Shown one piece after another: positions 37,852-57,868 of a stretch of 64,000 bases of DNA. The notes beneath the pieces are model-generated. The model saw nothing but the letters and a program-made list of their open reading frames with translations. It did not search any database and was not told the DNA's origin. Both the position numbers and the translations under genes were made by a program. Source of the stretch: Crossiella sp. CA-258035 (lineage in GTDB: Bacteria; Actinomycetota; Actinomycetes; Mycobacteriales; Pseudonocardiaceae); assembly GCF_030064675.1 (NCBI RefSeq), contig NZ_CP116413.1:4310001-4374000 (forward strand). Reading direction: 5' to 3'. Within the stretch, counting starts at the first letter, position 1; every line of letters begins with the position of its first letter.

Positions 37852-38121
37852 TCAATTGGGTGATGTGATCGTGCTTGGCGACTGTTTCCTGGGCTTCGGC
37901 TTGACCGGTTCGGGCTCGGTCAGGTCGGCGGTGGCCTCGGCGGTGAGGTCGGAGATCCCCTCGGCCGCTTTCGTCGCGGCTTTCCGCACCTCCAAGGCCA
38001 ATCCCACCGAGGCGCGGATCACGCCGCGAACCAGGGGTTTCGCCACCTTGGCCGCCAGTGGGGCGGTGACCAGCCCGATCAGGAACGGGGCGACGGCAGG
38101 CAATGGCATGGCCAGGTCCAT
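37852..38121 (-). CDS. DUF5132-like small membrane-associated protein
   Basis: An 89-residue protein: an N-terminal hydrophobic hairpin (about 5-45, with AVAPFLIGLVTAPLAAKVAK) and a charged helical tail ending in a KPKPRK segment. The pattern AKPLVRGVIRASVGLALEV is that of DUF5132 proteins, which commonly neighbour HMA-domain transporters and are of unknown function. It is transcribed with the downstream ABC exporter, whose HMA-like start is of the same genomic company, so an accessory role for that transporter is likely. Confidence 0.7.
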   Translation of the reverse strand: MDLAMPLPAVAPFLIGLVTAPLAAKVAKPLVRGVIRASVGLALEVRKAATKAAEGISDLTAEATADLTEPEPVKPKPRKQSPSTITSPN

Positions 38122-38310
38122 CCGTTCTTGTGAGTTTCCGAAATGCGCTGACTCCCAATTCCGACGCTAGACCCAGCTGTTGATCGAGTCAATCCCGCCG
38201 ACGCGCGGTGTGGATCATGACGTCTCTGATTAAGTGCATTCGCGGAGCCTGGGAATTCGCCGGTTCGGCCTAGTCAGGTCCGGGTCGGCCGGGGCTCGGC
38301 TGCGCACAGT

Positions 38311-38342
38311 GGTGTCTTTCTGTCGCTTCCCGTGAAGACACC
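38311..38342. promoter_or_regulatory. Inverted repeat upstream of the first biosynthetic gene
   Basis: Perfect eight-base arms GGTGTCTT (38311-38318) and AAGACACC (38335-38342) flank a 16-base centre, ending ten bases before a predicted -35 box. This is a candidate operator of a pathway regulator. The rest of the 300-base gap from 38122 shows nothing else I can support. Confidence 0.4.
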
Positions 38343-38352
38343 CCTCAGCCGA

Positions 38353-38381
38353 TTGTCACGAACTGGTGGACTTGCTCTACT
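38353..38381 (+). promoter_or_regulatory. Predicted promoter of the aminotransferase-ligase-hydrolase operon
   Basis: TTGTCA (38353-38358), a 17-base spacer, and TCTACT (38376-38381), followed 40 bases later by the GTG start with GGAGG. It would drive the three-gene operon 38422-41798. Confidence 0.4.
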
Positions 38382-38421
38382 TGATTACCCTGCGGGTGTC
38401 TCACGAATACGGAGGACGGCA

Positions 38422-39747
38422 GTGTCCACCTCATCGGTCAACCGGCAGAGCAATGCCGGCGCCCTGGACAAGATCAGGACCGTCATCGCGGGCGGGGTCA
38501 GCAGCGGCATGCGGATCGATGCCATCCCCCAGCCCCTGGTGGTGCGCCGGGCCAAGGACTGCCGGGTCTGGGACGTTGAGGACAACGAGATCATCGACCT
38601 CAACATGGGCTACGGCTCGCACCTGTTCGGCTATGCCGACACCGAGGTGCTGGCCGAGGTCGGCGAGCAGTTCGCCCTGGGCCACCTCACCGGCCTGCCG
38701 CACGAGCTGGACGCCGAGGCCGGTGCGCTGATCGCCGAGCTGGTGCCGGGCATCGAGCAGGTGCGCTTCGCCAACTCCGGCACCGAGGCGGTCACCTCCG
38801 CGCTGCGCCTGGCCAGGGTGAGCACCGGCCGGTCCCTGGTGGTGACCTTCGAGGGCCACTACCACGGCTGGAGCGAGACCGTGCTGCGCGCGGGCAAGGC
38901 CGTGGGGCACCTGCGGGAGGGCTCGCCGGAGCAGGTGCGGCCGGGCGCCCCCGGCATGATCCCGGAGGCGTTGGCGCACACCGCGCAGCTGCCCTGGAAC
39001 GACCACCGGGCCGCGCGGGAGCTCTTCGCCCGCGCCGGTCAGGACATCGCCGCGGTGGTGCTGGAACCGGTGCTGGTCAACGCCAACGTCATCCCGCCCG
39101 CACCCGGTTTCCTGGCCCTGCTGCGGGAGCTGACCCGCGACTCCGGCGCGCTGCTGGTCTTCGACGAGGTGATCACCGGCTTCCGGGTGGCCAGGGGTGG
39201 CGCGCAGGAACGCTACGGCGTGGAGCCCGACCTGACTGTGCTGTCCAAGGTGCTCGGCGGCGGGTTCCCGGTCTCGGCCTTCGGCGGCAGGCGGGCGGCG
39301 ATGCGGCTGCTGGCGGCCAACCAGGCCCACCACGCCGGGGTGTTCGCGGGCAACCACGCCGCGATCCGCGCGGTCGTCGCGCAGCTGGGCAAGATCCGCC
39401 GCACCCCCGGGGTCTACGCCGAGCTGGAACAGCTGGGCGCGCACGCCGAGGAAGGCGTCCGCGCGCTGGCCGCCGCCGAGGGCCGCCTGGTCCGCGTCGG
39501 CCGGGTCGGCTCGCTGGTGTCGGTGGCGCTGCTACGAGAACCGGTGGCGGCGGAGGCGGGGCTGCGGGAACTGGCCGCCGCGATCGACTTCGACGGCCAT
39601 CGGCGCTGGCAGATCGCCGCGCAGAAGGAGGGCGTCTACTTCCACCCCAATCCCATGGAACCCTGGTTCCTCAGCACCGCGCACACCAAGGACGTGCTCG
39701 ACAAGGTGCTCACCGCCCTCGGCCGGGCACTGGCCGGGGCCAGGTGA
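38422..39747 (+). CDS. Glutamate-1-semialdehyde aminomutase-like class III aminotransferase
   Basis: A 441-residue fold-type I PLP enzyme: phosphate-binding NSGTEA (118-123), DEVITGF (248-254) and the Schiff-base lysine in LSKVLGGGF (about 276). The family includes heme-pathway glutamate-1-semialdehyde aminomutase, but a cluster setting with a GTG start behind GGAGG indicates secondary metabolism. A similar enzyme in pactamycin biosynthesis turns 3-dehydroshikimate into 3-aminobenzoate; the next gene being an acyl-AMP ligase fits supply of such a starter acid. It is the first gene of a three-gene operon, with a GTGA overlap to the ligase. The specific reaction is inference. Confidence 0.88.
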   Translation: MSTSSVNRQSNAGALDKIRTVIAGGVSSGMRIDAIPQPLVVRRAKDCRVWDVEDNEIIDLNMGYGSHLFGYADTEVLAEVGEQFALGHLTGLPHELDAEAGALIAELVPGIEQVRFANSGTEAVTSALRLARVSTGRSLVVTFEGHYHGWSETVLRAGKAVGHLREGSPEQVRPGAPGMIPEALAHTAQLPWNDHRAARELFARAGQDIAAVVLEPVLVNANVIPPAPGFLALLRELTRDSGALLVFDEVITGFRVARGGAQERYGVEPDLTVLSKVLGGGFPVSAFGGRRAAMRLLAANQAHHAGVFAGNHAAIRAVVAQLGKIRRTPGVYAELEQLGAHAEEGVRALAAAEGRLVRVGRVGSLVSVALLREPVAAEAGLRELAAAIDFDGHRRWQIAAQKEGVYFHPNPMEPWFLSTAHTKDVLDKVLTALGRALAGAR

Positions 39748-41153
39748 GCGGCCGCGCCGAGCTCCTGGACACCCTCCGGGCCCAGGCCGCCCGGCTGGGC
39801 GAGCGGCCGCTGCTGGTGACCGGGGAGCACAGCCTCAGCGGCACGGAGTTCCTGGCGCTGCTGGTGGAAAAGATGCGTCGCTACCAGGGTGTGGGCATCG
39901 GCGGGGGCGCGGTGGTGGGCATCCAGGCCTGGCCACCGGCGGAGTTCCTCAGCGACCTGTTCGCCGCGATCGGCACCGGCGCGGTCGCCGTGCCGCTGCC
40001 GCGTCGTCTCACCGCGTGGGGACTGGAACGCGCCGAGGCGCTGCTGCCGCTGACCCACCTGGTGGTGGCGCCCGGTACCGGCTTCGGGCTCGGCCCGGTC
40101 ATCGCGCACGTCGGCGACAGGGTGCTGAGCCTGAACACCGCCCGCTCCGGGGAGGGGCCACGGCAGGCGGCCACTGCGCAGATCACCTCCGGCACCACCG
40201 GCCGCCCACGGGCCGCGCTGCGCACGGCCGCGGCCCTGCTCGCCGAGGCCGCCGCCTACCGGGACACCCTGGAGCTGGGCGAAGGCCAGGTGCTCGGCTG
40301 CTCGGTGCCGCTGCACCACGCCTACGGGTTCGGCCTGTGCGCGCTGGCCGCACCGCTGGCCGGGGTGTGCGTGCACCACCTCTCCGCCGAGCGGCCCCGG
40401 GTCCTGCTGCGCGAGCTGGCCGCCCGCGGCATCACCCTGTTCCCGGGGGTGCCACCGATGCTGCGGGTGCTGGCGAGCGCGGCGACCACCGCGGCGGGCA
40501 CCGACTTCCTCACCGCGGGCATGCCACTGGACGCCCGCACCGCCGACCTGGTGACCGGCAGGCTCGGCGCGCGGCTGGGCCAGGTGTACGGCACCACCGA
40601 GACCGGCCCGATCTGCGTGCGCCCGCCCGGCCCCCGCGCGGCCGACGGCTCGGTCGGCCCGCCACTGCCCGGAGTGGAGGTGCTGCTGGCCGCGCCGCCG
40701 GTGGACGCGCTGACCGCGGGCGGGCTCACCGGCGCGGGCCTGGTCACGGTGCGCTCGCCCAGCCTGATGTCCGGCTACGCCCACGACAGCCCGCCGCTGA
40801 CCGGGCACTTCGCCACCGGTGACCTGGCCAGGTGGTCCGGTGGGGAACTGGTGCTGGCCGGTCGGGTGTCCACCTGTCTCAACGTGGCCGGGATCAAGGT
40901 CAGCCCGGAGGAGATCGAGGCGGTGCTGCTGGCTTTCCCCGCCGTGTCGGCCTGCCTGGTGTCCGGAATGGACGATCCACTGCTGGGCCAGCGGATCACC
41001 GCGCTGGTCACCCCGGCCACCGTCGACCTGACCGCGCTGGCCGCGTTCTGCCGGGAGCGCCTGGAACCGGCCCTGCTGCCGCACCGCATCACCGCGGTGG
41101 CCGCGCTGGTCACCACCGAGACCGGCAAGGTCCTGCGGGACCAGCCGGTGTAG
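39744..41153 (+). CDS. Acyl/aryl-AMP ligase (adenylate-forming)
   Basis: A 469-residue ANL-superfamily enzyme: P-loop TSGTTGRPRA (about 149-158), YGTTETGP (about 281-288), GDLAR, the hinge after GRVSTCLNVAGIKVSPEE, and the C-terminal catalytic lysine in TETGKVLRD (about 463). It is shorter than acetyl-CoA synthetases and matches stand-alone ligases that activate aryl or fatty acids and load a carrier protein. The nearby discrete ACP is the obvious acceptor and the product of the preceding PLP enzyme the likely substrate. Its GTG overlaps that gene's stop, ensuring equal expression. Confidence 0.88.
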   Translation: MSGRAELLDTLRAQAARLGERPLLVTGEHSLSGTEFLALLVEKMRRYQGVGIGGGAVVGIQAWPPAEFLSDLFAAIGTGAVAVPLPRRLTAWGLERAEALLPLTHLVVAPGTGFGLGPVIAHVGDRVLSLNTARSGEGPRQAATAQITSGTTGRPRAALRTAAALLAEAAAYRDTLELGEGQVLGCSVPLHHAYGFGLCALAAPLAGVCVHHLSAERPRVLLRELAARGITLFPGVPPMLRVLASAATTAAGTDFLTAGMPLDARTADLVTGRLGARLGQVYGTTETGPICVRPPGPRAADGSVGPPLPGVEVLLAAPPVDALTAGGLTGAGLVTVRSPSLMSGYAHDSPPLTGHFATGDLARWSGGELVLAGRVSTCLNVAGIKVSPEEIEAVLLAFPAVSACLVSGMDDPLLGQRITALVTPATVDLTALAAFCRERLEPALLPHRITAVAALVTTETGKVLRDQPV

Positions 41154-41156
41154 GCC

Positions 41157-41798
41157 GTGCACCCCGTCCTGCTGCTGCACGCCCTCGGTGACACCAGCGC
41201 GAGCTGGCGTCAGCTGAGCACCCGGCTGGCCGCGCCGGGCCGCCAGGTGCTCACCCCGGACCTGCGCGGACACGGCGGCACCGCGGCCGAGTACACCGCC
41301 GCGCTGGTGTGCCAGGACCTGGTCGCGTTGCTGGACCGGCACGGGCTGGACCGGGTGGACGTGGTGGGCCACTCCCTCGGCGGGCACGTGGCCACGCTGC
41401 TCGCCCAGCGGCAGCCGCACCGCGTGCGCCGCCTCGTCCTGGAAGATCCGCCGCCGCCACCGAGGGATGAGCGGGACGCCGCCGCGATCCGCGCCCGGGT
41501 CCAGCCGCTGACCGCGTTCCTGCGGGATCGGCGCGGCCGGGTGGACCCCAGGGCGGTGCGCGCCTTCATCGAGGAGCTCCGCGAGCCGGACCCGGACTGG
41601 TGGCGGCGGCTGGCCACGATCACCGCGCGCACCCTGGTGGTCAGCGGCGGCCTGGACAGCCCGGTGCCGCCCGCCCTGCTGGCCAGGGTCGCCGCCGCGA
41701 TCCCGGACGCCCGGCTGATGTCCGCCTCGGCCGGGCACCATGTGCACCAGCGCCGGCCGGTGTACTTCGGCACGGTGGTCTCGGCGTTCCTGGCCTGA
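41157..41798 (+). CDS. Alpha/beta hydrolase, small (thioesterase/esterase-like)
   Basis: A 213-residue alpha/beta-hydrolase: oxyanion loop LLHALGDTSASW (about 6-17), nucleophile elbow GHSLGG (serine about 72), late aspartate in SGGLDSPVP and histidine in SAGHHVHQ. The length is typical of minimal members. In the cluster it might act as a type II thioesterase that clears the carrier protein, or hydrolyse an ester late in the pathway; sequence alone cannot tell. It starts at GTG three bases after the ligase stop and ends directly against the converging dehydrogenase gene. Confidence 0.85.
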   Translation: MHPVLLLHALGDTSASWRQLSTRLAAPGRQVLTPDLRGHGGTAAEYTAALVCQDLVALLDRHGLDRVDVVGHSLGGHVATLLAQRQPHRVRRLVLEDPPPPPRDERDAAAIRARVQPLTAFLRDRRGRVDPRAVRAFIEELREPDPDWWRRLATITARTLVVSGGLDSPVPPALLARVAAAIPDARLMSASAGHHVHQRRPVYFGTVVSAFLA

Positions 41799-42725
41799 TC
41801 ACACTCCGGCGAGCCGGTAGGCGGAGGTCACGATCTCCTGTAGTGCCAACGCCTCTCCGGCGGTGACCACCGCGCCGGGGCCGGATCCGGTGACGGTGTC
41901 GAAGAAGCCCGTCAACGCGGCCAGCTCGGGTCGTTGCCCGCTCGCCCGGACCGTGCCGCCGGCCAGCCGCAGCTCACCCCGCCGGAAGTCCAGCACGTGC
42001 GCGCCTGCCGGGGTGTGCGCGGTCAGCGTCATCGCCACCGTGCGCGCCGCCCGGTCCAGCCGCAGCACCGCGGGCACCCCGTCGAAGGTCAGCCGCAGCT
42101 CGGCCTGGTCCTCCACCGCCCCACCGGTCAGCGAGCACTCCTCGACCTCCGGCGGCCCGAACACGGTGACCAGCACGTCCAGGGCGTGCGTGCCCAGGTC
42201 CAGCAGCACGCCACCGCCGGCCAGCCGCCGGTCCCGGTGCCACGGCGTGCAGGCCCGCCACAGGCGGTCGCCGGGCGTGCTCATGGTGAACTCGATCCCG
42301 GTGACCACGCTGTCCCGCACCGCCGAGGTGAAGGCGGGCAGCAGCTCGTGGAAGCGGTAGGGCAGGTTGACCCCGAACAGCGGGTCCCCGTTGACCCGTG
42401 CGGCCAGCAGCCGGGCCTGGTCGATCCTGGCCGCCAGGGGTTTCTCGCACAGCACCGCCACCCCGGCGGCCAGCGCGGCCAGCGCCGGCGGCACGTGGTC
42501 CTCGTTGGGCGTGCACACGGTGAGCACGTCCGGCCGGGTGCGGCCCAGCAGCTCCTGGACCGAGTCGCCGACCCACACCCCGGAGTCCGCCGGGAACAGC
42601 CCCGCGGTGCGTCCGGGGTCCCGGTCGCAGGCGCCGACCAGCTCCAGGTCCGGCCGGGAGTCCAGGAACGGCAGGTGGTAGCGCTGGCAGACCCGGCCGC
42701 AGCCGATGACCGCGACCCGGATCAT
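41799..42725 (-). CDS. Gfo/Idh/MocA-family NAD(P)-dependent dehydrogenase
   Basis: A 308-residue oxidoreductase: N-terminal Rossmann domain with VIGCGRVCQRYHLP (about 6-19), the family's EKPLA motif (about 94-98, the lysine being catalytic), and a C-terminal alpha/beta domain with a DLGTHALD segment. Such enzymes oxidise or reduce a hydroxyl of sugars, inositols or aminocyclitols. In a cluster with a PIG-L deacetylase, an aminotransferase and a carbamoyltransferase, an amino sugar or cyclitol substrate is likely. Its ATG overlaps the stop of the radical SAM gene upstream. Confidence 0.88.
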   Translation of the reverse strand: MIRVAVIGCGRVCQRYHLPFLDSRPDLELVGACDRDPGRTAGLFPADSGVWVGDSVQELLGRTRPDVLTVCTPNEDHVPPALAALAAGVAVLCEKPLAARIDQARLLAARVNGDPLFGVNLPYRFHELLPAFTSAVRDSVVTGIEFTMSTPGDRLWRACTPWHRDRRLAGGGVLLDLGTHALDVLVTVFGPPEVEECSLTGGAVEDQAELRLTFDGVPAVLRLDRAARTVAMTLTAHTPAGAHVLDFRRGELRLAGGTVRASGQRPELAALTGFFDTVTGSGPGAVVTAGEALALQEIVTSAYRLAGV

Positions 42726-44455
42726 CGGCTGGTGGCCGGGGCGGGGGACTGGCAGGCCTGCTCGATCTGGACGGCGAAGTCGGGGAAGGCCGCGCCGAGG
42801 TGGCAGCGGTCGTACCCCTCGACCAGCCCGCGCAGCGCGGTCTCCAGCCGCGCAGCCAGGTCAGGGCCGCCCAGGTCGGCCAGCAGCAACCCGGTGTTGA
42901 GGAAGGCCACCAGCAACCGGTCCAGGCTCTGGTCCCAGCGGCGCAACCGGCTCAGCAGCGGCCGCACGTCCGGGCCCGCGCCGCCGCGCCGGGCCCGGAC
43001 CGTGTCGGCGATGCGCTGGGCCAGGAAGGGGACCTCGTTCTCCTTGCGGTCGTTGATGTCCGAGCTGACCGCGCTCCACGCCGACCACAGGTCCTCCACC
43101 CGTTCGTCGGCCACCCGGTACTCCCGGCGCGCCTGCCGCAGCACCTCCCAGGCCACCCCGTCCACCCCGGGGATGTCCGGTTCGCCGTAGGTGGTGACCT
43201 TGTCGTAGATCTCGGTGCCGCGCAACGCGATCGCCCGGTTGATCAGGAAGAACGGGTTCTCGCACTCGTGCACCCTGGCTGCCACGATGAACTCCAGGTT
43301 CTGCCACAGCTCGTCCACCGTGGTGCCCGGTTCGATCATGATCCAGCCGGGTTCCAGCTCGATCCGCTCCTGCTTGAACATGCGGGCGGCGTCGAAGTTG
43401 TAGTCCACCGTGGTGCCCTTGCGGAAGCGCTTCATCATGCCCGGCGAGCCGGTCTCCATGCCCAGCAGCGCCAGCTCCATGCCCGCCCGGCGCAGGGTGC
43501 GCAGGGCCTCGCGGTCGATCAGCCCGGTGTCGACGCGGAACTCGCAGTGGAAGCTCACCTTCAGGTTGCGCCGCAACACTTCCTCGGCGAAACCCACCGC
43601 GTGCTGGTAGCCCTCGGCGAACGCGCCGCCGAAGTTGTCGTCGTTGAACCAGACGAACCGGGTGCCGAACTCCCGTTGCAGGAACTCGATCTCATCCACC
43701 GCGTCCACGATCGGCCGCACCCGCCACGGACCGCCCTCCACCCCGGGTTGCCTTGGCGCGTAGCAGAACGTGCACTTGGCGTGGCAGCCCCGGCTGGTGT
43801 AGGTGGAGGCGCGCGGGGTGGGGATGCCGGTGGCCCGGTGGTGCAGCAGCAGGTCCCGGGCCGGCCAGGGCTCCGCGGCCAGGTCGGGCAGCTTCGGCGG
43901 GCCGCTGGTGCTGACCCGGCCGTCGCGCCAGAAGTACAGACCGGGCACCTGCCGCCAGTCCCGCCCGGCGGCCAGGCAGTCCATCAAGCCTTCCGCGGTC
44001 AGCTCGCCCTCGCCGTAGGCCACGCAGTCGGCCTCCGGCACCCGTTCGGCGATGAGCTTGGCGTTGTAGGTGCAGAACGCCCCGCCGATGGCCACGAACA
44101 CCGAGGGGTCGGCCGCGCGCACGCAGCGCAGCAGGCGGACCGCGTCGATGATGTGCAGGTCGTACATGATGCTGATGCCCACGAACACCGGGCGTTCCTG
44201 GCGCACCAGCGCGGTGATCGCCTCGTCGCTGGGGTTGCGGCCGTGCAGGTTCAGCGCGGTGACCGAGTAGCCGCGGTGGCGCAGGTGCCCGGCGATGCAG
44301 GCCACGCCCAGGTTTTCCCGCACCCGCTTGTAGAACAGCCGCATGGCCGGGTCCAGGCGCAGGTACTCCTCGTCGTTGATCAGCACGTTCTGGTTGTTCA
44401 GGCTGGCCGCGCCGGTGGAGATCTCCCGTGGGGTCAGCAGGACCACGTCGGACAT
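42722..44455 (-). CDS. Cobalamin-binding radical SAM enzyme 1 (tandem copy A)
   Basis: A 577-residue class B-type radical SAM protein: an N-terminal B12-binding-like domain (about 1-175; IGGAFCTYN is the GGxxxT-like part, but the canonical DxHxxG is replaced by LNLHGRN), then the radical SAM core with cluster cysteines CHAKCTFC (224, 228, 231), and about 180 helical residues at the C-terminus. Enzymes of this class commonly methylate unactivated carbon, though some catalyse other rearrangements. The neighbouring gene upstream on the same strand is a close paralogue (about four-fifths identical by eye in the first half), a recent duplication. An aminobenzoyl- or sugar-derived intermediate is the presumed substrate. 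Confidence 0.88.
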   Translation of the reverse strand: MSDVVLLTPREISTGAASLNNQNVLINDEEYLRLDPAMRLFYKRVRENLGVACIAGHLRHRGYSVTALNLHGRNPSDEAITALVRQERPVFVGISIMYDLHIIDAVRLLRCVRAADPSVFVAIGGAFCTYNAKLIAERVPEADCVAYGEGELTAEGLMDCLAAGRDWRQVPGLYFWRDGRVSTSGPPKLPDLAAEPWPARDLLLHHRATGIPTPRASTYTSRGCHAKCTFCYAPRQPGVEGGPWRVRPIVDAVDEIEFLQREFGTRFVWFNDDNFGGAFAEGYQHAVGFAEEVLRRNLKVSFHCEFRVDTGLIDREALRTLRRAGMELALLGMETGSPGMMKRFRKGTTVDYNFDAARMFKQERIELEPGWIMIEPGTTVDELWQNLEFIVAARVHECENPFFLINRAIALRGTEIYDKVTTYGEPDIPGVDGVAWEVLRQARREYRVADERVEDLWSAWSAVSSDINDRKENEVPFLAQRIADTVRARRGGAGPDVRPLLSRLRRWDQSLDRLLVAFLNTGLLLADLGGPDLAARLETALRGLVEGYDRCHLGAAFPDFAVQIEQACQSPAPATSR

Positions 44456-50178: not shown

Positions 50179-50221
50179 GCACGCTCCTCGCCCGCAATTG
50201 GCACGGCTCGGCATTCTCGCC

Positions 50222-50227
50222 AATGTA
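50222..50227 (-). promoter_or_regulatory. -10 candidate for the left-running radical SAM/ACP/KS operon
   Basis: TACATT on the minus strand (50227-50222), about 44 bases upstream of the GTG start, is the best -10 box in the 174-base divergent gap. The -35 is not clear. Confidence 0.3.
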
Positions 50228-50340
50228 GCGCACAACCGGTGGCTCGACTACCGTCGCGAAATGTCGCTGGGTAAATCGGGGCACCTTGGGCCGATCGCAT
50301 TACATTTGCTTTGCGGGTCGTTGGGTCCGGCTGCGGCAGC

Positions 50341-50346
50341 TACGCT
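50341..50346 (+). promoter_or_regulatory. -10 candidate giving a leaderless PIG-L transcript
   Basis: TACGCT ends six bases before the ATG at 50353, and there is no Shine-Dalgarno sequence, so the message probably starts at the initiation codon. Confidence 0.35.
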
Positions 50347-50352
50347 GAGCGA

Positions 50353-51312
50353 ATGACCGAATTACCGGATGCGTGGCGGCCCATCGCGCTGCCCCATACG
50401 GAGGTCACCGCCACCGGAATGTCTTTCCTGGGCCGTCCGGTCGAACCACCCGTAGCCGATCCGGACCTACTGGCCCGCTGCGACGGCAGCCGGGCACTCC
50501 GCGAGTTCTCCTCGGCGGAACAGGACCTGCTGCGGCACGGCCACCGCGCCGGGCTGCTCGTGCTGGCCCCGCCACCCCGGCCCCGCGCGGGCGAGGCTCC
50601 CGTGGTGGTCTCCCCGCACCCGGATGACGCCGTGCTCGCCCTCGGCGGCCTGCTGGCCGCGCGCGGCGGCCGGGTGCTCGACGTGTTCAGCGTGGAGACC
50701 TGGACCAGCCGCCCCTACTACGCGGCCCGCCCCGAGCTGACCACCCGGCTGCTGGTGGCCGAGGAGCTGGTGGCCTGCCGGGTGCTGGCCGCCGAGCCCG
50801 AACTGCTGGGCTTCCTCGACGCCGCCGACCGGCCTGAACGCGCGGCGGGCTTCCTGGCGCCGGACCCGGTGGCCGGGCACACCGGGGAGCCGGAGCTGTT
50901 CGCGGCGCTGACCGCCAGGTTGGCCAAGGAGCTCGCCGGGTGCGCCGAGGTGTACCTGCCGCTGGCGGTCGGCGGGCACGTCGACCACCTGGCCTGCCGA
51001 GAGGCCGTGCTGGCCCTGGCCGCCAGGGGAGCGTTGCGTAACAGTCGCCTCCACTTCTACGAAGACCAGCCGTACTCGCTGTTCACCTCGGCGGGCGAGC
51101 TGAGCGCGGCACTGGCCCCACGGTTGCGCGCGGCCGGGCTGGACCGGCTCCAGTCGCGACTGCTGCCGATGGACGCCATCGCCGGGCAGGCCAAACAGGA
51201 GGCGCTGAAGGCCTACCGCATCCAGGTGCGCGCGGGCATCCGGCGGCGGGTGGCGCGGTACGGCCGGGCACTGGGCGGGCCGGGCGCGGCCGCCGAACGG
51301 GTGTGGAGCTGA
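50353..51312 (+). CDS. PIG-L/LmbE-family zinc deacetylase
   Basis: A 319-residue deacetylase with the family zinc motif SPHPDDAVLALGG (HPDD at about 89-92) and the third ligand in GGHVDH (about 209). Members remove N-acetyl groups from GlcNAc-containing small molecules, as in mycothiol, teicoplanin and pactamycin biosynthesis. An 85-residue N-terminal region precedes the domain. In this cluster it implies an N-acetylated amino-sugar intermediate, although no glycosyltransferase is present. It is divergent from the main left-running operon and is followed by a regulator gene 15 bases on. Confidence 0.87.
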   Translation: MTELPDAWRPIALPHTEVTATGMSFLGRPVEPPVADPDLLARCDGSRALREFSSAEQDLLRHGHRAGLLVLAPPPRPRAGEAPVVVSPHPDDAVLALGGLLAARGGRVLDVFSVETWTSRPYYAARPELTTRLLVAEELVACRVLAAEPELLGFLDAADRPERAAGFLAPDPVAGHTGEPELFAALTARLAKELAGCAEVYLPLAVGGHVDHLACREAVLALAARGALRNSRLHFYEDQPYSLFTSAGELSAALAPRLRAAGLDRLQSRLLPMDAIAGQAKQEALKAYRIQVRAGIRRRVARYGRALGGPGAAAERVWS

Positions 51313-51327: not shown

Positions 51328-51942
51328 ATGTACGTGTTGGCCGGAACACTGGCCGCGGCGGACCTCGCCGTGGTCACCGACGCGTGTGCCGAGCTGGGCC
51401 TCGCGGTGCACCACGACGATCACGAGGTGGCCGACGACGTCATGCTGTGCGCCCTGCACCGCACCGGGGGCGAGGCGGTCGAGCCCTCCCCGGCCGAGGT
51501 GCGGCGGCGCGGCGGCTACCCGATCGCGGTGCTGGACTCCGTCTCGGCCACCGGCGTGCTCGGCGCGCTCACCGAGGGCTACGCGTTCGCGCTGGCCACG
51601 CCGTTGCGGCGGCCCCGGGTAGTGGCGGCACTGGGCTACCTCAAGTCGGTGGCCCCGCCGGAGCCCGCGCAGCGGCTGACCCTGGCGCCCGGTCTGCTGC
51701 GCTCCCCGTCCCGGCAGACGCCGGTGACCGCGGCCGAGGCCGGGCTGCTGCGGGCGCTGGCGAACAAGCCCGGGCAGATCGTCTCCCGCACGGAGCTGGC
51801 CGGGGCCGCGGGCGACGAGGACGTGAACGCGGTGGTCTCGGTGCTGCGGCGGAAGCTGGCCGACATCGACTCCGGCGCGAAGATCCTCAAGGTGCCACAC
51901 CTGGGGTTCCGGCTGGTCGGCACGGTCGAGGACACCCGGTAG
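51328..51942 (+). CDS. Atypical OmpR-type response regulator, probable pathway regulator
   Basis: A 204-residue protein with a C-terminal winged helix of the OmpR/PhoB type (about 118-200: VNAVVSVLRRKLADIDSG and VPHLGFRLVG). The N-terminal 110 residues look like a receiver fold, but the strand that should carry the phosphorylated aspartate reads DDVMLCALHR, and the KPF-like position is ATPL, so aspartate and lysine are both lost. No sensor kinase is nearby. Such receivers (JadR1 is the known example) respond to ligands, often pathway products. The likely targets are the cluster promoters. A GGAGGGA site precedes the ATG. Confidence 0.75.
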   Translation: MYVLAGTLAAADLAVVTDACAELGLAVHHDDHEVADDVMLCALHRTGGEAVEPSPAEVRRRGGYPIAVLDSVSATGVLGALTEGYAFALATPLRRPRVVAALGYLKSVAPPEPAQRLTLAPGLLRSPSRQTPVTAAEAGLLRALANKPGQIVSRTELAGAAGDEDVNAVVSVLRRKLADIDSGAKILKVPHLGFRLVGTVEDTR

Positions 51943-51946: not shown

Positions 51947-52498
51947 ATGCGCGTGCTCGTGATCACCGGCGCCCCCGGCGCCGGCAAGACCCAGGTGGCC
52001 CAGCGGCTGGCCGCCTGCTTCCTGGTGCCGGTGGCGGTGCTGGACTGCGATCCGTTCGTGCACCCGTGGGAGTCCGGCGAACCCCTGCACCGGCTGATGG
52101 CGGCCGAGCTGGCCGCGCGCATCCCCGCCTATGCGGAGTGGGGCGCGCGGGTGATCGTGGTGCACGGGGTGATCCTGGCCGGCGGGCGCACCTATGAGCC
52201 GGTGATGGCCGCGCTGTGGTCGCTGGGCACCACACCCGTGGTGTACGGGCTGCGCGCCGGACCGGAGGTGCTCGCCGACCGGATCCGGCAGGACCAGGCC
52301 GCCCCGCACCTGGTCGACGGGCGGCTCGCGCTGACCCACCTGGACGAGGACGTGCCCGAGGTGCCCGGGGCCCGCCTCATCGACACCGCGCACCGCGACG
52401 CGGAGGCCGTGGTCGCCGAGATCGCCCGCCAGGAGTCAGCCGACCTGGGACCCGGCTGGCTCCTGGGCCAAACACCCCGCGAAAAGCCCCGCCCGTAA
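51947..52498 (+). CDS. P-loop NTPase, small-molecule kinase-like
   Basis: A 183-residue protein with Walker A GAPGAGKT (8-15) and an adenylate-kinase/AAA_33-like fold: a following DCDPFVHP loop, a lid-like VVYGLRAGPEVLADRIRQD segment, and an HLDED region. Relatives phosphorylate nucleotides, sugars or antibiotics, the last as self-resistance (chloramphenicol phosphotransferase-like). It starts four bases after the regulator stop, so it belongs to the PIG-L/regulator/kinase operon. Either a biosynthetic phosphorylation or a resistance function is possible. Confidence 0.75.
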   Translation: MRVLVITGAPGAGKTQVAQRLAACFLVPVAVLDCDPFVHPWESGEPLHRLMAAELAARIPAYAEWGARVIVVHGVILAGGRTYEPVMAALWSLGTTPVVYGLRAGPEVLADRIRQDQAAPHLVDGRLALTHLDEDVPEVPGARLIDTAHRDAEAVVAEIARQESADLGPGWLLGQTPREKPRP

Positions 52499-52632: not shown

Positions 52633-53700
52633 TCAGCTGTAGCGGCCTATCGTCAGGCCGCCGTCGCCGGGCCGCAGGGAGAGCACGCAGGGGTGGTAGT
52701 GGGTGGCTCCGATGCTCTGCACGTACGCGCGGTACTCGCGGCCGAGGTCCCCGGCCAGGTTGCCCTGCTCGTCGCGTTCGGCGAAGGCGGGCCAGCGCGG
52801 CGGCGTCGGCGGCTTGAGCAGCATCCGCGCGGACAGGCCGAGTCCGGGCAGCTCATCGGCCAGTTGCGCCGCGCAGAACGGGCCGCGCTGGTCGCCGAAG
52901 GAGGCGAACTGCACCAGCGCCTCACCCCGCTCGGTCAGCAGCTCCGGCAGCTGGCGCACGATGGCCCACACGAAGTCCAGCCCGTCCGGGCCGCCCTCCC
53001 CGGCCAGCCAGCCCAGCGCGCCCCGGCGCAACGGCAGGAACGGCGGGTTGGAGATCACCAGGTCGAACCGCTCGCCCAGGTCCAGGGCCGCCATGTCGGC
53101 CTGCCGCACGGCCACCCGGTCGGCCAGGCCGTTGAGGGCGGCGTTGAAGGTGGTCGCGGCCAGGCACTCCGGGTTGATGTCCACCGCGAGCGCCCGCGCG
53201 CCGTTGCGGGCCGCGGTCATGGCCAGCGCGCCGGTGCCGCAGCCCAGGTCCAGCGCGGTCCGGGCGGTGCGCCGGGCGGCCACCAGGCGGCAGAGCGTGC
53301 TGGTGTCGGTGCCCACCCACGGCGCGTACGAGCCGACCTCCCGGCCGGCCGCGCGCCAGGCCGCCAGCAGCGTCAGGCCCTCCAGCCGGACCAGCGCGTA
53401 GTCGGCCGAGAGCAGGCCCGACCCGACGGAGACGATCTTGGCGTGGCTCAGCAGCGCCAGCAGCGGCGCGGGCAGCGACCCCTCCGGCACCTGCCGTCCC
53501 AGCACGAACAGCGCGGCCAGCGCCTGCTCCTCCGGCAGTCCGGCGACCGCGCGCAGGTACTCCGGGTGGCGCCAGGGCGCGAGGTCGCCGAAGCGGGCGC
53601 CGGCCATGACCAGCAGGTCGTGCTGGGGCAACCGGGTCAGCCTGGCCGCGTCCGCCCGCTCGTAGTCAGTGGGGCCCAGTCCGTCCACCGAGATCATCAC
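52633..53700 (-). CDS. SAM-dependent methyltransferase with NPPF motif
   Basis: A 355-residue class I methyltransferase: SAM motif LDLGCGTGAL (about 149-158), acidic motif AVDINPE, and an NPPF tetrapeptide (about 217-220), typical of methylation on a planar or amide nitrogen (HemK/PrmC-like). The first 130 residues are a helical N-terminal domain. In this cluster it is the natural candidate for N-methylation of the product. The GTG start overlaps the stop of the upstream radical SAM gene as GTGA, with a near-identical ATG option one codon on. Confidence 0.87.
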   Translation of the reverse strand: MMISVDGLGPTDYERADAARLTRLPQHDLLVMAGARFGDLAPWRHPEYLRAVAGLPEEQALAALFVLGRQVPEGSLPAPLLALLSHAKIVSVGSGLLSADYALVRLEGLTLLAAWRAAGREVGSYAPWVGTDTSTLCRLVAARRTARTALDLGCGTGALAMTAARNGARALAVDINPECLAATTFNAALNGLADRVAVRQADMAALDLGERFDLVISNPPFLPLRRGALGWLAGEGGPDGLDFVWAIVRQLPELLTERGEALVQFASFGDQRGPFCAAQLADELPGLGLSARMLLKPPTPPRWPAFAERDEQGNLAGDLGREYRAYVQSIGATHYHPCVLSLRPGDGGLTIGRYS

Positions 53701-54863
53701 GCGCTCCCGAACACTGGTGCGAACGTCGACTTCAGCTCCCGCAGCCGGGCGAGGGCCCTGGGACCCGCGTACGGCGCGCAGCGGGTGATCTCCTCATCGG
53801 AGATGTGGTCCAGCAGGTACAGGTTGACCACGTCGATCGGCCCGGTGCAGCTGCGGCAGTAGGGGAACCGCGGCCGCGGCTGCATGAACATCTCGTAGTG
53901 CTGGTGCTTGCCGAACTGCTCGTGGATCAGCTGCGGCTCGGCGGTCACGTTGCCCATCGGCTTGAGCCAGGCGTAGGGACAGCAGGACACATCGCCCTGC
54001 CCGAACAGCTGGACCATGGTCGCGGTGGCGTAGCAGCGCAGGGTGCGCACGCCGGTGCGCAGCTGGTTGCCGATGTGCTCGACGAAGGCCCGCGGCGGCA
54101 GCACCGGCGCCAGCTCGTCGTAGCGGGCCAGCAGCTCGGCGAAGTGGTCGCCCAGCGGCGGGGCCAGGTTGTCCTTGGCCTCCCCGCGCACCGGGAAGAA
54201 GTACAGCATCGCGCCGGAGCCGTAGCGCTGGAGCAGGAACTCGGCGAAGGCGGCCTGCCCGGTCACGTTGACGTTGCTGAGCACCGACTGCACCTCGACC
54301 GGGATGCCGCGTTCGACCGCGCCGTCCAGGCCACGCATGATCACCTCGAACAGCCGGTGCTGCTTCGGCGGCAGCCGGTGGGCGTTCATCGCCAGGGTGT
54401 GCCCGTCCAGGGACAGGCAGAGCTGGCAGTTGCCCAGCGCGGCCAGCGCGTCCAGCCGGGCGTCGGTGAGGAAGACGCCGTTGGTGATTACCTGGACAAC
54501 CTCGTACTTCTTACTGCATTCGGCGACAAACTCGGTGGAGCCTTTCAGCCAGAAGAACTCACCACCGGAGAGCCGCATGATCGGGCTGTCCACCTGCTCG
54601 TGATAGGCGTCCAGGATCCGGTGCCAGTCTGCCCGCCGGTCCGTGGTGAGCCGGAACTTGGCATCCGGCACGTTCATCAGCAGGTTGAAGTCCTCGGTCA
54701 GGCAGTACGAGCACCGCATCTGGCACAGCTGCTCCTCGATGACCATGTCGTTCATGAGCAGCCGCAGCCGATTGTGCTCGTCCCGGTTCGCGAACATCGC
54801 CGCGCGGTAGTCGTCCTTGAGAGACACGCCGTACCCCATGATTCGTGAGGCATTCCGGCCCAT
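53697..54863 (-). CDS. Radical SAM enzyme with C-terminal auxiliary cysteines (SPASM/twitch-like)
   Basis: A 388-residue protein with the cluster motif CQMRCSYC (47, 51, 54), a GGEFFW segment for SAM binding (MRLSGGEFFW), and a late cysteine-rich region (CYATAT, then SCCPY and CRSC) that could hold one or two more iron-sulfur clusters, as in SPASM/twitch enzymes. No B12 domain is present. Members dehydrogenate alcohols, epimerise or form bonds; in aminoglycoside and aminocyclitol pathways they oxidise a sugar hydroxyl. I keep the ATG at 54863, just after a promoter predicting a near-leaderless transcript; an ATG eight codons in is the alternative. A methyltransferase is coupled downstream. 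Confidence 0.85.
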   Translation of the reverse strand: MGRNASRIMGYGVSLKDDYRAAMFANRDEHNRLRLLMNDMVIEEQLCQMRCSYCLTEDFNLLMNVPDAKFRLTTDRRADWHRILDAYHEQVDSPIMRLSGGEFFWLKGSTEFVAECSKKYEVVQVITNGVFLTDARLDALAALGNCQLCLSLDGHTLAMNAHRLPPKQHRLFEVIMRGLDGAVERGIPVEVQSVLSNVNVTGQAAFAEFLLQRYGSGAMLYFFPVRGEAKDNLAPPLGDHFAELLARYDELAPVLPPRAFVEHIGNQLRTGVRTLRCYATATMVQLFGQGDVSCCPYAWLKPMGNVTAEPQLIHEQFGKHQHYEMFMQPRPRFPYCRSCTGPIDVVNLYLLDHISDEEITRCAPYAGPRALARLRELKSTFAPVFGSA

Positions 54864-54873: not shown

Positions 54874-54903
54874 AGCCTAGGAGGGCCGTCAGCAGACGGT
54901 CAA
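54874..54903 (-). promoter_or_regulatory. Promoter of the radical SAM-methyltransferase pair
   Basis: TTGACC (54903-54898), 18 bases, TAGGCT (54879-54874), ending ten bases before the ATG at 54863. The short distance means little or no untranslated leader. Confidence 0.55.
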
Positions 54904-54956
54904 TACGCCATACGATACCGGCGGAAAGCACACTGTAGAACTCGGCTGGCAATTCC

Positions 54957-54985
54957 TGGACCGGGTCGGAACCGGTCGGTAAACT
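54957..54985 (+). promoter_or_regulatory. Promoter of the carbamoyltransferase-DegT pair
   Basis: TGGACC (54957-54962), 17 bases, TAAACT (54980-54985), about 47 bases upstream of the ATG at 55032. It is back to back with the radical SAM promoter, so one regulator could act on both. Confidence 0.5.
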
Positions 54986-55031
54986 CGCGAATCTCGACCG
55001 TCCCCATTTTCCTGCGGGTAAGGACACGCGT

Positions 55032-56723
55032 ATGCTCGCGCTCGGTCTCGGTGGTTCCAATCACGACTTCTCCGCCGCCCTGGTGCACGAGGGCGGGATC
55101 AGCGTCGCCATCGAGGAGGAGCGGCTGGCCCGCCGCAAGTACGCCGTCGGCGTCAACTCGCTGGCCAACCGGGGCTGGCGGTACTGCCTGGACACCCACG
55201 GCGCCCGGCTGGCCGAGGTCGACGTCATCGTCGCCGACGACACCCTGCTGCCCACCTGCTACTTCCAGTTCCGCGGCCGCACCCAGCTGATCCGCCACCA
55301 CCTCGCGCACGCCGCCAGCGCCTTCTACCCCTCCCCGTTCCCGGAGGCGGCGATCCTGGTGGCCGACGGCGCGGGCAGCATGGTCGACGGGCACGGGGTG
55401 GAGACGCTGACCCTCGGCGTGGGGCACGGGACCGGCATCCACGAGCTGTCCAAGGTCTACGGCACCGAGTGGACCACCGACGGCAGGCACGCCGACCGGG
55501 TGTACCAGGCCGGGGACAGCAACCACTCCCTCGGCTTCCTGTACAAGGCGGTCAGCCACGCCATCGGCTTCACCCTGTACGAGGAGGGCCCCTGGTACCT
55601 CACCGAGGACGGCAAGACCATGGGCCTGGCCCCCTACGGCGGCGACCGCTACCTGGCGCGGTTCCGCCGGCACCTGGAGCTGCTGCCGGAGGGCCGCTTC
55701 GCCTTGCACCTCAAGGGTTCCGACGGCCTGCTGGAGTTCCTGGAACACGCGCTGGACGGCCTGGAGGGGGAGGAGCGCTTCGCCAGGGCCGCGGACCTGG
55801 CGTGGGCGGCCCAGGAGACCCTGGAGACCGCGCTGCTGCACGCGGCGCGCTGGCTGCAACGGGAGACCGGCCTGACCCGGCTGGCACTGGCCGGCGGGGT
55901 GGCGCTGAACTCGGTGGCCAACGGGAAACTGTTGCGGCACACGCCGTTCACCGAGGTCTTCGCCCAGCCCGCCGCCGGGGACAACGGCTGTGCGATCGGC
56001 TGCGCCTACTACGGCTACCACCAGCTCGTCGACCGCCCCCGCCCGCGCGGCCCCCGGCCACAGACCCACACCTACCTCGGCCGCACCCACACCGACGAGG
56101 AGCTGCAAGCCGCGCTGGCGGCGGCCGAACTGCCCTACCGCAAGGTCGAGCACCCGGCCCGGCTGGCCGCGGCCCTGCTGCCCCGCGGCGCGCTGCTCGG
56201 CTGGTTCACCGGCGGCTCGGAGTTCGGTCCGCGCGCGCTGGGCCACCGCAGCATCCTGGCCGACCCCCGGCGGCCTGAGATGAAGGACATCCTCAACAGC
56301 AAGGTCAAGCACCGGGAGTCCTTCCGCCCCTTCGCCCCCGCGGTGCTGGCCGAGCGCTGCGCGGAGTACTTCGAGCTGGACATCGAGTCGCCGTTCATGC
56401 TGATCGTGGCGCCGGTCCGGGAGCACCGCCGGGCGGAGGTGCCCGCGATCACCCACGTGGACGGCACCGCCCGCGTGCAGACGGTGACCCGTGAGGCCAA
56501 CGGGTCCTTCTACGAACTGGTGGCCCGCTTCGGTGAGCTGACCGGGGTGCCGGTGGTGCTCAACACCTCCTTCAACGACCGGGGCGAGCCGATCGTGGAG
56601 ACCCCGGAGCAGGCGCTGGCCTTCTTCGGTCCGAGCAAGCTGGACTACCTGTTCCTGGAGGACTACCTGGTGGCGCACAGCGAGCCGGAGCTGGACACTG
56701 CCCTGGCGGGGACCGCCGGGTGA
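55032..56723 (+). CDS. O-carbamoyltransferase (NodU/CmcH/TobZ family)
   Basis: A 563-residue full-length carbamoyltransferase. The N-terminal Kae1-like domain has the HHLAHAASAF metal-binding histidines (about 88-97), the DGAGSMVDG nucleotide loop and a GGVALNSVAN ATP site; the C-terminal YrdC-like part (about 380-550) carries FGPRALGHRSILAD and FNDRGEPIV. The enzyme makes carbamoyl-AMP from carbamoyl phosphate and ATP, then transfers the carbamoyl group to a hydroxyl (or amine). It is a clear sign that the cluster product carries a carbamate or urea. The following aminotransferase overlaps its stop as GTGA. Confidence 0.93.
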   Translation: MLALGLGGSNHDFSAALVHEGGISVAIEEERLARRKYAVGVNSLANRGWRYCLDTHGARLAEVDVIVADDTLLPTCYFQFRGRTQLIRHHLAHAASAFYPSPFPEAAILVADGAGSMVDGHGVETLTLGVGHGTGIHELSKVYGTEWTTDGRHADRVYQAGDSNHSLGFLYKAVSHAIGFTLYEEGPWYLTEDGKTMGLAPYGGDRYLARFRRHLELLPEGRFALHLKGSDGLLEFLEHALDGLEGEERFARAADLAWAAQETLETALLHAARWLQRETGLTRLALAGGVALNSVANGKLLRHTPFTEVFAQPAAGDNGCAIGCAYYGYHQLVDRPRPRGPRPQTHTYLGRTHTDEELQAALAAAELPYRKVEHPARLAAALLPRGALLGWFTGGSEFGPRALGHRSILADPRRPEMKDILNSKVKHRESFRPFAPAVLAERCAEYFELDIESPFMLIVAPVREHRRAEVPAITHVDGTARVQTVTREANGSFYELVARFGELTGVPVVLNTSFNDRGEPIVETPEQALAFFGPSKLDYLFLEDYLVAHSEPELDTALAGTAG

Positions 56724-57868
56724 CGCGGTACGAGCCGTGGCGCGGGCTGGCGCTGTGGGGCCAGGAGGAGGAAACCGCCGCGCTGGAGGTGCTGCGCTCC
56801 CGTTCGCTGTTCCGCTACTACGGGCCGGAGTTGTTGCACCGCACCGATTCTTTCGAACGCGAGCTGGCGGAGCTGCTGGAGGTGCCGCACACCGTCGCGG
56901 TCTCCTCGGGCACCGCCGCACTGGCCTGCGCGCTGATCGGCCTTGGCATCCCGGAGGGCGCGGAAGTGATCATGCCCGCGGTCACCTTCGTCGCCTGCGC
57001 CAACGCCGTGGTCTGGGCCAGGGGAGTGCCGGTCTTCGCCGAGGTCGACGACACGCTCACCCTGGACCCGGTGGCGCTGGCGGAGAAGGTCAGCGACCGC
57101 ACCTGGGGCGTGCTGCCGGTGCACCTCAACAACGCCGCCGCCGACCTGGACCCCATCCTCGCGGTGGCCCGGCGGCATGACCTGGTCGTGCTGGAGGACG
57201 CCGCACAGGCCGCCGGGGTCCGTTACCGGGGCCGCCGGGCCGGGTCCCTGGGCGACGCGGGCGCGTTCAGCTTCCAGCTGGAGAAGAACATCACCGCGGG
57301 CGAGGGCGGCGCGGTCAGCGTGCGGGATCCGTTGGCGCACCAGCGGATCGTGCGCTACCAGGACCAGGGCGGCCAGTTCACCACCGCACGGGGCGAGTCC
57401 CGCGCGCAGGCGGCCGAACCCTTCCTCGGCGTGAACCTGCGCATGACGGAACTGACCGCGGCCCTGCTCCGCGTGCAACTGGGCCGCCTGGACCCGATGC
57501 TGGCGCACCTGCGCTCGGTGGCCGCCGAGGTCCGCGCCGCACTGCCCGAGCTGCACTGGCGGCGACTGCCGGATGAAGAGGGCTCCGGCGGCGACCTGAC
57601 CTTCTTCCTCGGCTCCCGCCTGGAAGCCCGCGACCGGGTGGCCGCCCTGACCGCGGACGGCATTCCCGCGCACACCCTCTACCAAGGGCAGCCGGTGTAC
57701 AGCAGTCCCGCGATCCGGGCCGGGCGCACCCCCTGGGGCACGCGGTGGGGCACTCCTGCCCGCTGCCGGGACAGCGAGGGCCTGCTGGGCCGTTCGGTGA
57801 CGATCAGCCTGGGCGCCACCATGACCGCGGCGGACGTGCGCGCGGTGATCACCGCCCTGCGCGGCTGA
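56720..57868 (+). CDS. DegT/DnrJ/EryC1/StrS-family aminotransferase
   Basis: A 382-residue PLP enzyme of the sugar aminotransferase group: SSGTAAL (about 64-70), the EDAAQAAG aspartate segment (about 156-163) and the PLP lysine in LEKNITAGEGG (about 190). These enzymes transfer an amino group from glutamate or glutamine to a keto-sugar or ketocyclitol. Partnered with the Gfo/Idh dehydrogenase and the radical SAM dehydrogenase-like enzyme, it would install an amine on an oxidised position of the core. It is coupled by GTGA to the carbamoyltransferase and ends at a strong stem-loop that bounds the cluster. Confidence 0.92.
   Translation: MTRYEPWRGLALWGQEEETAALEVLRSRSLFRYYGPELLHRTDSFERELAELLEVPHTVAVSSGTAALACALIGLGIPEGAEVIMPAVTFVACANAVVWARGVPVFAEVDDTLTLDPVALAEKVSDRTWGVLPVHLNNAAADLDPILAVARRHDLVVLEDAAQAAGVRYRGRRAGSLGDAGAFSFQLEKNITAGEGGAVSVRDPLAHQRIVRYQDQGGQFTTARGESRAQAAEPFLGVNLRMTELTAALLRVQLGRLDPMLAHLRSVAAEVRAALPELHWRRLPDEEGSGGDLTFFLGSRLEARDRVAALTADGIPAHTLYQGQPVYSSPAIRAGRTPWGTRWGTPARCRDSEGLLGRSVTISLGATMTAADVRAVITALRG

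What the first reader, a model, noticed from the sequence alone, without database searches (positions are those of the whole stretch)
37852..57868. Biosynthetic cluster with pactamycin-like parts but no glycosyltransferase or PKS
Seen: GSAM-like PLP enzyme, acyl-AMP ligase, discrete ACP and KS, three cobalamin radical SAM enzymes, one further radical SAM enzyme, PIG-L deacetylase, O-carbamoyltransferase, NPPF methyltransferase, Gfo/Idh dehydrogenase and DegT aminotransferase. Known: pactamycin biosynthesis uses a GSAM-like 3-aminobenzoate synthase, an AMP ligase, discrete ACP/KS, a PIG-L deacetylase, several radical SAM methylases and carbamoyl transfer to build an aminocyclopentitol from GlcNAc. 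Inference: this is a related aminobenzoyl/amino-sugar pathway. The missing glycosyltransferase and salicylate synthase, and the tandem radical SAM pair, suggest a distinct product.
Basis: partly seen in the sequence, partly recalled or inferred. Interest (0 to 1): 0.88.

Follow-up and report, generated by a model that had tools for sequence, protein, structure and literature searches.

The report
Pactamycin-type cluster lacking its glycosyltransferase
A rare soil actinomycete (Crossiella) carries a trimmed version of the gene cluster that makes the antibiotic pactamycin, with the sugar-attaching enzyme gene cut out of the cluster and a possible stand-in kept elsewhere on the chromosome.

Summary
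Window 38332-57868 is a nearly colinear counterpart of the pactamycin cluster, not a loosely related pathway. The PLP enzyme matches structures 4zm3/4zm4 (S. pactum PctV, identity recalled) at 664.6 bits, against 270.6 for the best haem-pathway GSAM. Six of six Streptomyces clusters readable at that point have a glycosyltransferase between ACP and KS; seven of seven have a type I PKS and KASIII beside the ligase. Three of three Crossiella clusters lack that PKS/KASIII pair, so I predict a de-6-methylsalicyl, 7-deoxy (jogyamycin-like) product. The glycosyltransferase is present in Crossiella sp. S99.2 but excised in the window's species and Crossiella sp. SN42, its last codons fused to the ACP gene. 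A homologous glycosyltransferase + dehydrogenase pair sits about 220 kb away. Sixteen cluster genes remain intact and constrained (pooled dN/dS 0.18), so glycosylation probably continues, perhaps through the satellite enzyme; but the satellite also occurs in one species without the cluster. A pactamycin-like cluster in S99.2 was already in print (PMC9415966).

The parts
35501..37795 (-). ABC exporter, probable export gene of the island
   Evidence: Pfam ABC_tran/ABC_membrane; beside the cluster in all three Crossiella genomes that have it
37852..38121 (-). small DUF5132 protein
   Evidence: Pfam PF17195; beside the ABC gene in all three
38332..39747 (+). 3-aminobenzoate synthase (PctV/PtmT type); the true start probably lies at least 11 codons further in
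   Evidence: 664.6 bits to 4zm3 against 270.6 to the best haem GSAM; a stop lies in the upstream frame in G187
39744..41153 (+). aryl-AMP ligase (ptmS slot)
   Evidence: Pfam AMP-binding; 53-57% to Streptomyces counterparts
41157..41798 (+). alpha/beta hydrolase (ptmO slot)
   Evidence: Pfam Abhydrolase; 52-54% to counterparts
41799..42725 (-). Gfo/Idh sugar dehydrogenase (ptmN slot)
   Evidence: Pfam; 49-55% to counterparts
42722..44455 (-). cobalamin radical SAM protein (ptmM slot)
   Evidence: Pfam B12-binding + Radical_SAM; 80-84% to counterparts apart from a short end piece
44483..46207 (-). cobalamin radical SAM protein (ptmL slot)
   Evidence: Pfam; 73-86% to counterparts apart from short end pieces
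46226..47971 (-). two-part ketosynthase (ptmK slot): extra N-terminal region fused to a KS with Cys, two His and Lys motifs
   Evidence: Pfam; NCBIfam AmcF 111.4 bits over residues 202-568, below its cut-off of 325; motifs read; N-terminal region also in Streptomyces
47968..48258 (-). acyl carrier protein (ptmI slot); its last two codons and stop (47968-47976) match the end of the excised glycosyltransferase gene
   Evidence: Pfam PP-binding; codon comparison with G188 and G187
48286..50235 (-). cobalamin radical SAM C-methyltransferase (ptmH slot)
   Evidence: NCBIfam NF033712 879.7 bits; 67-68% to counterparts
50311..51312 (+). PIG-L/LmbE deacetylase (ptmG slot)
   Evidence: Pfam 30.0 bits, cut-off 28.2; 46-60% (partly in pieces) to counterparts
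51328..51942 (+). winged-helix regulator (ptmF slot)
   Evidence: Pfam Trans_reg_C; 55-61% to counterparts
51947..52498 (+). P-loop protein (ptmE slot), role inferred as regulatory
   Evidence: AAA match below cut-off; 49-53% to counterparts
52633..53700 (-). PrmC/HemK-like N-methyltransferase with NPPF motif (ptmD slot), probably methylates the urea nitrogen
   Evidence: Pfam/NCBIfam; 55-60% to counterparts; substrate inferred
53697..54863 (-). radical SAM protein (ptmC slot), homologue of mitomycin-type radical SAM proteins
   Evidence: Pfam; 79-84% in seven Streptomyces pactamycin-type loci, 29-33% in 18 distant loci
55032..56723 (+). carbamoyltransferase (ptmB slot)
   Evidence: Pfam Carbam_trans_C 234.2 bits; 73-83%
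56720..57868 (+). DegT sugar aminotransferase (ptmA slot)
   Evidence: Pfam 258 bits; 66-72%
57911..59575 (-). PHP-type metallohydrolase carried with the island, role unknown
   Evidence: Pfam PHP; next to the cluster in all three Crossiella, with 71-75% paralogues elsewhere

Best explanation
This is a pactamycin-type aminocyclopentitol pathway without the 6-methylsalicyl branch. Expected route (steps inferred from homology and recalled pathway knowledge): the PctV-type enzyme makes 3-aminobenzoate from 3-dehydroshikimate; the ligase loads it on the ACP; the two-part KS extends it once; a glycosyltransferase attaches GlcNAc to the aryl amine; Gfo/Idh + DegT, PIG-L and the PtmC-type radical SAM protein turn the sugar into the five-membered aminocyclitol; the cobalamin radical SAM proteins add carbon groups; carbamoyltransferase plus NPPF methyltransferase make the dimethylurea. 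Without ptmQ/ptmR and a nearby P450 the product should be a de-6-methylsalicyl, 7-deoxypactamycin (jogyamycin-like). In this species the in-cluster glycosyltransferase gene was excised cleanly; the step is most likely supplied in trans by a paralogous glycosyltransferase in a GT-Gfo/Idh-AdoMet decarboxylase satellite locus about 220 kb away. Shown here: homology, gene order, excision, intactness, constraint. Inferred: reactions, product, trans supply (about 0.5 on its own).
For: PctV match. Colinear Streptomyces clusters whose slots agree with the ptm gene roles in PMC13402214 (passages): radical SAM C, H, L, M; glycosyltransferase J; sugar genes A, B, G, N (that the letters follow gene order is recalled). 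PMC9415966 (passages) reports about 80% similarity to S. pactum for a pactamycin-like cluster of the S99.2 strain. Glycosyltransferase in G187 between ACP and KS; scar identical in window and SN42. Satellite GT 66-69% and Gfo/Idh 72-75% identical over the four genomes, same GT motifs, Gfo/Idh grouped with the Crossiella in-cluster copies. After the loss: 16 of 16 genes without a stop in the aligned stretch; dN/dS 0.181 (0.137-0.230) overall, 0.177 (0.107-0.247) for nine sugar-side genes. No orthologous 6-MSA synthase: best PKS 42% in the window genome, with a 42-43% match in each of the other four Crossiella genomes.
Against: The satellite pair also exists, syntenic, in a species without the cluster (G185) and is followed by an AdoMet decarboxylase gene, so it may have its own role. 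No product, expression or enzyme data. The S. pactum cluster itself was not held; only PctV (identity recalled) is a direct S. pactum comparison. The place of the satellite GT relative to the in-cluster GT is unresolved. Two sugar-side genes are less constrained after the loss (KedN5-type 0.30, NPPF methyltransferase 0.37).
Confidence: 0.75

Rival explanations
1. The cluster is glycosyltransferase-less in function: it makes and releases an unglycosylated 3-aminobenzoyl-derived compound, or is silent and decaying.
For: The in-cluster gene is cleanly gone; the satellite has an independent distribution.
Against: Sugar-side genes show no stops and remain constrained after the loss (pooled dN/dS 0.177, 0.107-0.247); three of the four radical SAM genes and the carbamoyltransferase lie at 0.04-0.08. 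No long identity patch at the junction suggests a very recent spread of the deletion.
Confidence: 0.2
2. A distinct aminobenzoyl/amino-sugar pathway unrelated in product to pactamycin.
For: No 6-MSA synthase and no glycosyltransferase in the cluster.
Against: All other slots are filled by counterparts in pactamycin order; the tandem radical SAM pair is part of that order.
Confidence: 0.1
3. A mitomycin-type (AHBA) pathway.
For: The single radical SAM protein, ligase, PIG-L and Gfo/Idh have distant counterparts in mitomycin-type loci.
Against: Only 29-33% identity for the radical SAM protein; the window has a PctV-type enzyme and its DegT is not AHBA synthase-like (126 bits to 1b9h against 419 and 498 for the AHBA-type proteins).
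Confidence: 0.02

Closest known systems
Pactamycin / 7-deoxypactamycin cluster (ptm/pct, Streptomyces pactum)
   Same: 3-aminobenzoate synthase, ligase, ACP, KS, three cobalamin radical SAM proteins, PtmC-type radical SAM protein, PIG-L, carbamoyltransferase, DegT, Gfo/Idh, hydrolase, N-methyltransferase and two regulator-slot genes in the same relative order (judged on seven Streptomyces clusters of this type and the recalled ptm order)
   Different: no ptmQ/ptmR (6-methylsalicyl branch), no P450 found nearby, in-cluster ptmJ excised
Jogyamycin (Streptomyces sp. a-WM-JG-16.2; structure recalled, only a citation seen)
   Same: predicted product class: pactamycin core without the 6-methylsalicyl ester
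   Different: I know of no published jogyamycin gene cluster to compare with (recalled)
Pactamycin-like cluster of Crossiella sp. Cross-1/Cross-2 (PMC9415966, passages; S99.2 here)
   Same: same island, 83-97% protein identity, same lack of ptmQ/ptmR
   Different: keeps the glycosyltransferase; the passages read mention neither the missing PKS nor the glycosyltransferase
Mitomycin cluster (mitA-E, PMC8621148, passages)
   Same: aminobenzoate + ligase + ACP + GlcNAc transferase + PIG-L + radical SAM logic; radical SAM protein of mitomycin-type loci homologous at about 30%
   Different: AHBA starter, no PctV, different tailoring
Cispentacin KS AmcF with partner AmcG (PMC10698177, passages)
   Same: KS part resembles AmcF (111.4 bits, below the family cut-off)
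   Different: window KS carries its own N-terminal extra region in one chain; likeness to AmcG untested

Membership tests
pactamycin cluster | PctV/PtmT 3-aminobenzoate synthase | tested here: met
   664.6 bits to 4zm3/4zm4 against 270.6 to the best haem GSAM; identity of these entries as PctV is recalled
pactamycin cluster | ligase, ACP and KS | tested here: met
   53-57%, 61-67% and 47-56% to the Streptomyces clusters
pactamycin cluster | four radical SAM proteins at slots C, H, L, M | tested here: met
   slot letters from PMC13402214 (passages)
pactamycin cluster | sugar-modifying genes A, B, G, N in order | tested here: met
pactamycin cluster | glycosyltransferase PtmJ in the cluster | tested here: not met
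   absent in window and SN42; present in G187 and in 6 of 6 Streptomyces clusters readable there (a seventh contig ends before it); paralogue outside the cluster
pactamycin cluster | 6-MSA synthase PtmQ and KASIII-like PtmR | tested here: not met
   homologues in 7 of 7 Streptomyces clusters (one PKS cut by a contig end, one in two pieces), none between hydrolase and ligase in 3 of 3 Crossiella; no orthologue elsewhere in the genome (PKS only)
pactamycin cluster | C-7 P450 PtmY | tested here: not met
   no P450 among the 20 proteins given to Pfam between 35.5 and 61.0 kb; genes further out not scanned
pactamycin cluster | produces a pactamycin | not testable with these tools
   needs culture and mass spectrometry
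mitomycin-type cluster | AHBA synthase | tested here: not met
   window DegT 126 bits to 1b9h, against 419 and 498 for AHBA-type proteins

The most novel reading that the evidence does not exclude
A split antibiotic pathway: the cluster lost its essential glycosyltransferase by a clean excision and now depends on an old, syntenic chromosomal GT-Gfo/Idh-AdoMet decarboxylase locus that exists independently of the cluster. Cluster-only genome mining would misread such a pathway as glycosyltransferase-free.
Probability: 0.45. Interest if true: 0.6.

Novelty: new variant of a known kind. Interest (0 to 1): 0.5.

Why it matters
Pactamycin's cytotoxicity has kept it from use as a drug, and engineered congeners such as de-6MSA-7-demethyl-7-deoxypactamycin are reported as much less toxic (PMC4418703, passages). 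The Crossiella clusters look like a natural source of the de-6-methylsalicyl class outside Streptomyces. The excised glycosyltransferase and the satellite pair give a clean, testable case of whether a biosynthetic cluster can outsource an essential step. The wider survey also ties pactamycin and mitomycin logic together through one radical SAM family and shows AHBA-primed pactamycin-type clusters for which I found no description in the one search made.

Tried and rejected
Tried without use: KS relatives in G372, G373 and G213 (43-48%) proved not to be pactamycin-type: beside the KS only exporter matches and, in G373, one weak ligase match in 40 kb each. AlphaFold of the two-part KS failed (mean pLDDT 36.1), so the idea that its N-terminal part is an AmcG-like partner domain is untested; no fold search was run. 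The P-loop protein found no informative solved relative. Whether the GT loss is a recent sweep was checked by identity along the junction: one 150-base bin beside it has no differences, but so do two bins further off, and the bin holding the junction has five; so no clear sweep. ACP has 0 synonymous and 4 non-synonymous differences between window and SN42, unexplained. The first blast script and the first dN/dS script failed part-way and were rerun. In one search two aligned stretches held one stop each: the exporter in SN42 (not followed) and the PLP enzyme in G187 (upstream of the likely start). With the PLP start moved in, 16 of 16 cluster genes show none (exporter, DUF5132 and PHP genes not in that set).

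Rejected: haem GSAM reading of the PLP enzyme; mitomycin reading; tandem radical SAM pair as a sign of a new product; assembly error as the cause of the missing glycosyltransferase (same junction in a one-contig genome and a separate draft).
Full report
The window lies in a single-contig 9.17 Mb genome at G000:C1:4310001-4374000.

Observation. The cluster also holds an alpha/beta hydrolase, a winged-helix regulator and a P-loop protein.

Relatives. Among 390 genomes of the family, full-length relatives of the KS appear only in the window genome, SN42 and S99.2. One scan of a collection of 84,980 species genomes with the single radical SAM protein returned 31 loci (records near the window's own genome may be left out). 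They fall into tiers. Crossiella: two, 97-99%. Tier 1, seven Streptomyces (Tue 6430, A012304, niveiscabiei, acidiscabies, DSM 15324, griseoruber, AJS327): 79-84%, with the window's gene order, apart from AJS327 where part of the cluster is rearranged. In the six whose locus reaches that far a glycosyltransferase lies between ACP and KS; the niveiscabiei contig ends before it. All seven carry KASIII and type I PKS homologues beside the ligase (Tue 6430 in two PKS pieces, niveiscabiei cut by the contig end) and a PLP enzyme of 67-71% identity (domains of the acidiscabies pair). Tier 2, four loci, 61-62%. Tier 3, 18 loci at 29-33%, including Pseudomonas and Burkholderia.

Link to pactamycin. No S. 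pactum record turned up in the scan. Three lines tie tier 1 and the window to its cluster. The PLP enzyme matches 4zm3/4zm4 at 664.6 bits against 270.6 for the best haem GSAM; that these entries are S. pactum PctV is recalled. [quoted passage not shown] The ptm gene roles given in PMC13402214 (passages) fit the order slot by slot, if the letters follow gene order (recalled). PMC9415966 (passages) reports pactamycin as the closest known cluster for one region of Crossiella Cross-1/Cross-2, with neighbouring genes about 80% similar to S. pactum, and lists that region as exclusive to these strains against C. cryophila and C. equi; its accession JALMDK is the S99.2 record found here. So presence in Crossiella is already in print; the passages read mention neither the missing PKS nor a missing glycosyltransferase. 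A paper search for Crossiella, pactamycin, jogyamycin and gene cluster found 49 papers with two of the terms; among the 15 listed no other holds both Crossiella and pactamycin.

What is missing. In the window, SN42 and S99.2 the hydrolase and ligase genes are adjacent, so ptmQ and ptmR are absent there. The best match to the tier 1 PKS in the window genome is 42%, with a 42-43% match in each of the other four Crossiella genomes, so it is not cluster-specific. In S99.2 a family 2 glycosyltransferase of 290 residues lies between ACP and KS. In the window and SN42 no trace remains there. The ACP genes in both end in GTC CGG TGA like the S99.2 glycosyltransferase gene, whereas the S99.2 ACP gene ends in GGC CGA TGA: the deletion fused the end of the glycosyltransferase gene to the ACP gene, keeping the 4-base overlap with KS. 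Since tier 1 has the gene in the same slot, loss rather than gain is the simpler reading.

Satellite. The window genome has one close homologue, 67-68% identical, at C1:4127568-4128452, followed by a Gfo/Idh gene 73% identical to the in-cluster one and by an AdoMet decarboxylase gene. The locus is syntenic in SN42, S99.2 and G185; G186 has only remote matches. G185 lacks the cluster: no match to the single radical SAM protein at E <= 0.001, while 3 of 5 Crossiella genomes have a full-length one. Glycosyltransferase motifs are kept in all four satellite copies; the Gfo/Idh tree groups satellite and in-cluster Crossiella copies (92/100), while the glycosyltransferase tree leaves the in-cluster copy unresolved. 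The satellite genes themselves show dN/dS of 0.10-0.34 between genomes.

Is the pathway alive? Between the window and SN42, both after the loss, 16 of 16 cluster genes have no stop in the aligned stretch; pooled dN/dS is 0.181 (bootstrap 0.137-0.230), and 0.177 (0.107-0.247) for the nine sugar-side genes, not higher than against S99.2 (0.236 and 0.200). Values per gene run from 0.04 to 0.37; ACP has no synonymous change, so none could be given. Enzymes that act on the sugar are still under selection, so some enzyme probably still supplies it. That the satellite does so is inference, weakened by its presence without the cluster.

Island. Exporter, DUF5132 and PHP genes lie with the cluster in all three genomes, but outer neighbours differ: the OYE-type neighbour at 34226 has only a 54% match in S99.2, and a flanking S99.2 gene has no match at E <= 1e-60 in the other four genomes.

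Wider pattern. Tier 2 clusters (L073-L076) have a second DegT whose L074 copy matches AHBA synthase 1b9h at 418.7 bits, with counterparts plus an AroB-like gene in 4 of 4; none of these four genomes has the PctV-type gene at E <= 1e-60. They look like AHBA-primed pactamycin-type clusters. In 4 of 18 tier 3 loci (L080, L081, L083, L086) the order DegT, GT, PIG-L, radical SAM, ligase is visible and matches mitA-E as recalled, with roles as in PMC8621148 (passages); an AHBA-synthase-like gene lies inside 8 of 18 fetched stretches, and in S. griseoviridis just outside. The type of the other tier 3 loci, the Pseudomonas ones among them, was not settled.

Verdict. Works like the pactamycin pathway up to the de-6-methylsalicyl core; it is a variant rather than a full member, because the 6-MSA branch and the in-cluster glycosyltransferase were tested and not found.

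Noticed in passing
L073-L076: Four loci (Streptomyces IBSBF 2953, Actinobacteria OV320, S. phaeoluteigriseus, S. bobili) combine pactamycin-type genes with AHBA synthase-like and AroB-like genes, and their genomes lack the PctV-type gene at E <= 1e-60: apparently AHBA-primed pactamycin-type clusters.
   Followed up: partly
L077-L094: The PtmC-type radical SAM protein has about 30% homologues in mitomycin-type loci and in loci of unsettled type in Pseudomonas, Burkholderia and a Rhodospirillaceae MAG.
   Followed up: partly
L116 (S. niveiscabiei, G791:C517): A second pactamycin-like locus in a genome that also has a tier 1 cluster: GT 51%, PctV-type 63%, ligase 52%, PIG-L 48%, cobalamin radical SAM 67%.
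   Followed up: no
L057:18204-20000 and L058:1-957 (G000:C1:4126203-4128452 and just beyond): Conserved GT-Gfo/Idh-AdoMet decarboxylase locus, syntenic in four Crossiella genomes, with a weak winged-helix regulator match beside it in the window genome and SN42.
   Followed up: partly
window 57911-59575: PHP-type metallohydrolase tied to the island, with a tandem pair of 71-75% paralogues elsewhere in four of five Crossiella genomes.
   Followed up: no
L032:10779-13055: The SN42 exporter alignment holds one stop codon; not examined whether it is real or an alignment overrun.
   Followed up: no
window 46226-47971: The ketosynthase has an extra N-terminal region, also in Streptomyces counterparts, possibly a fused partner domain like cispentacin AmcG; structure prediction failed.
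   Followed up: partly
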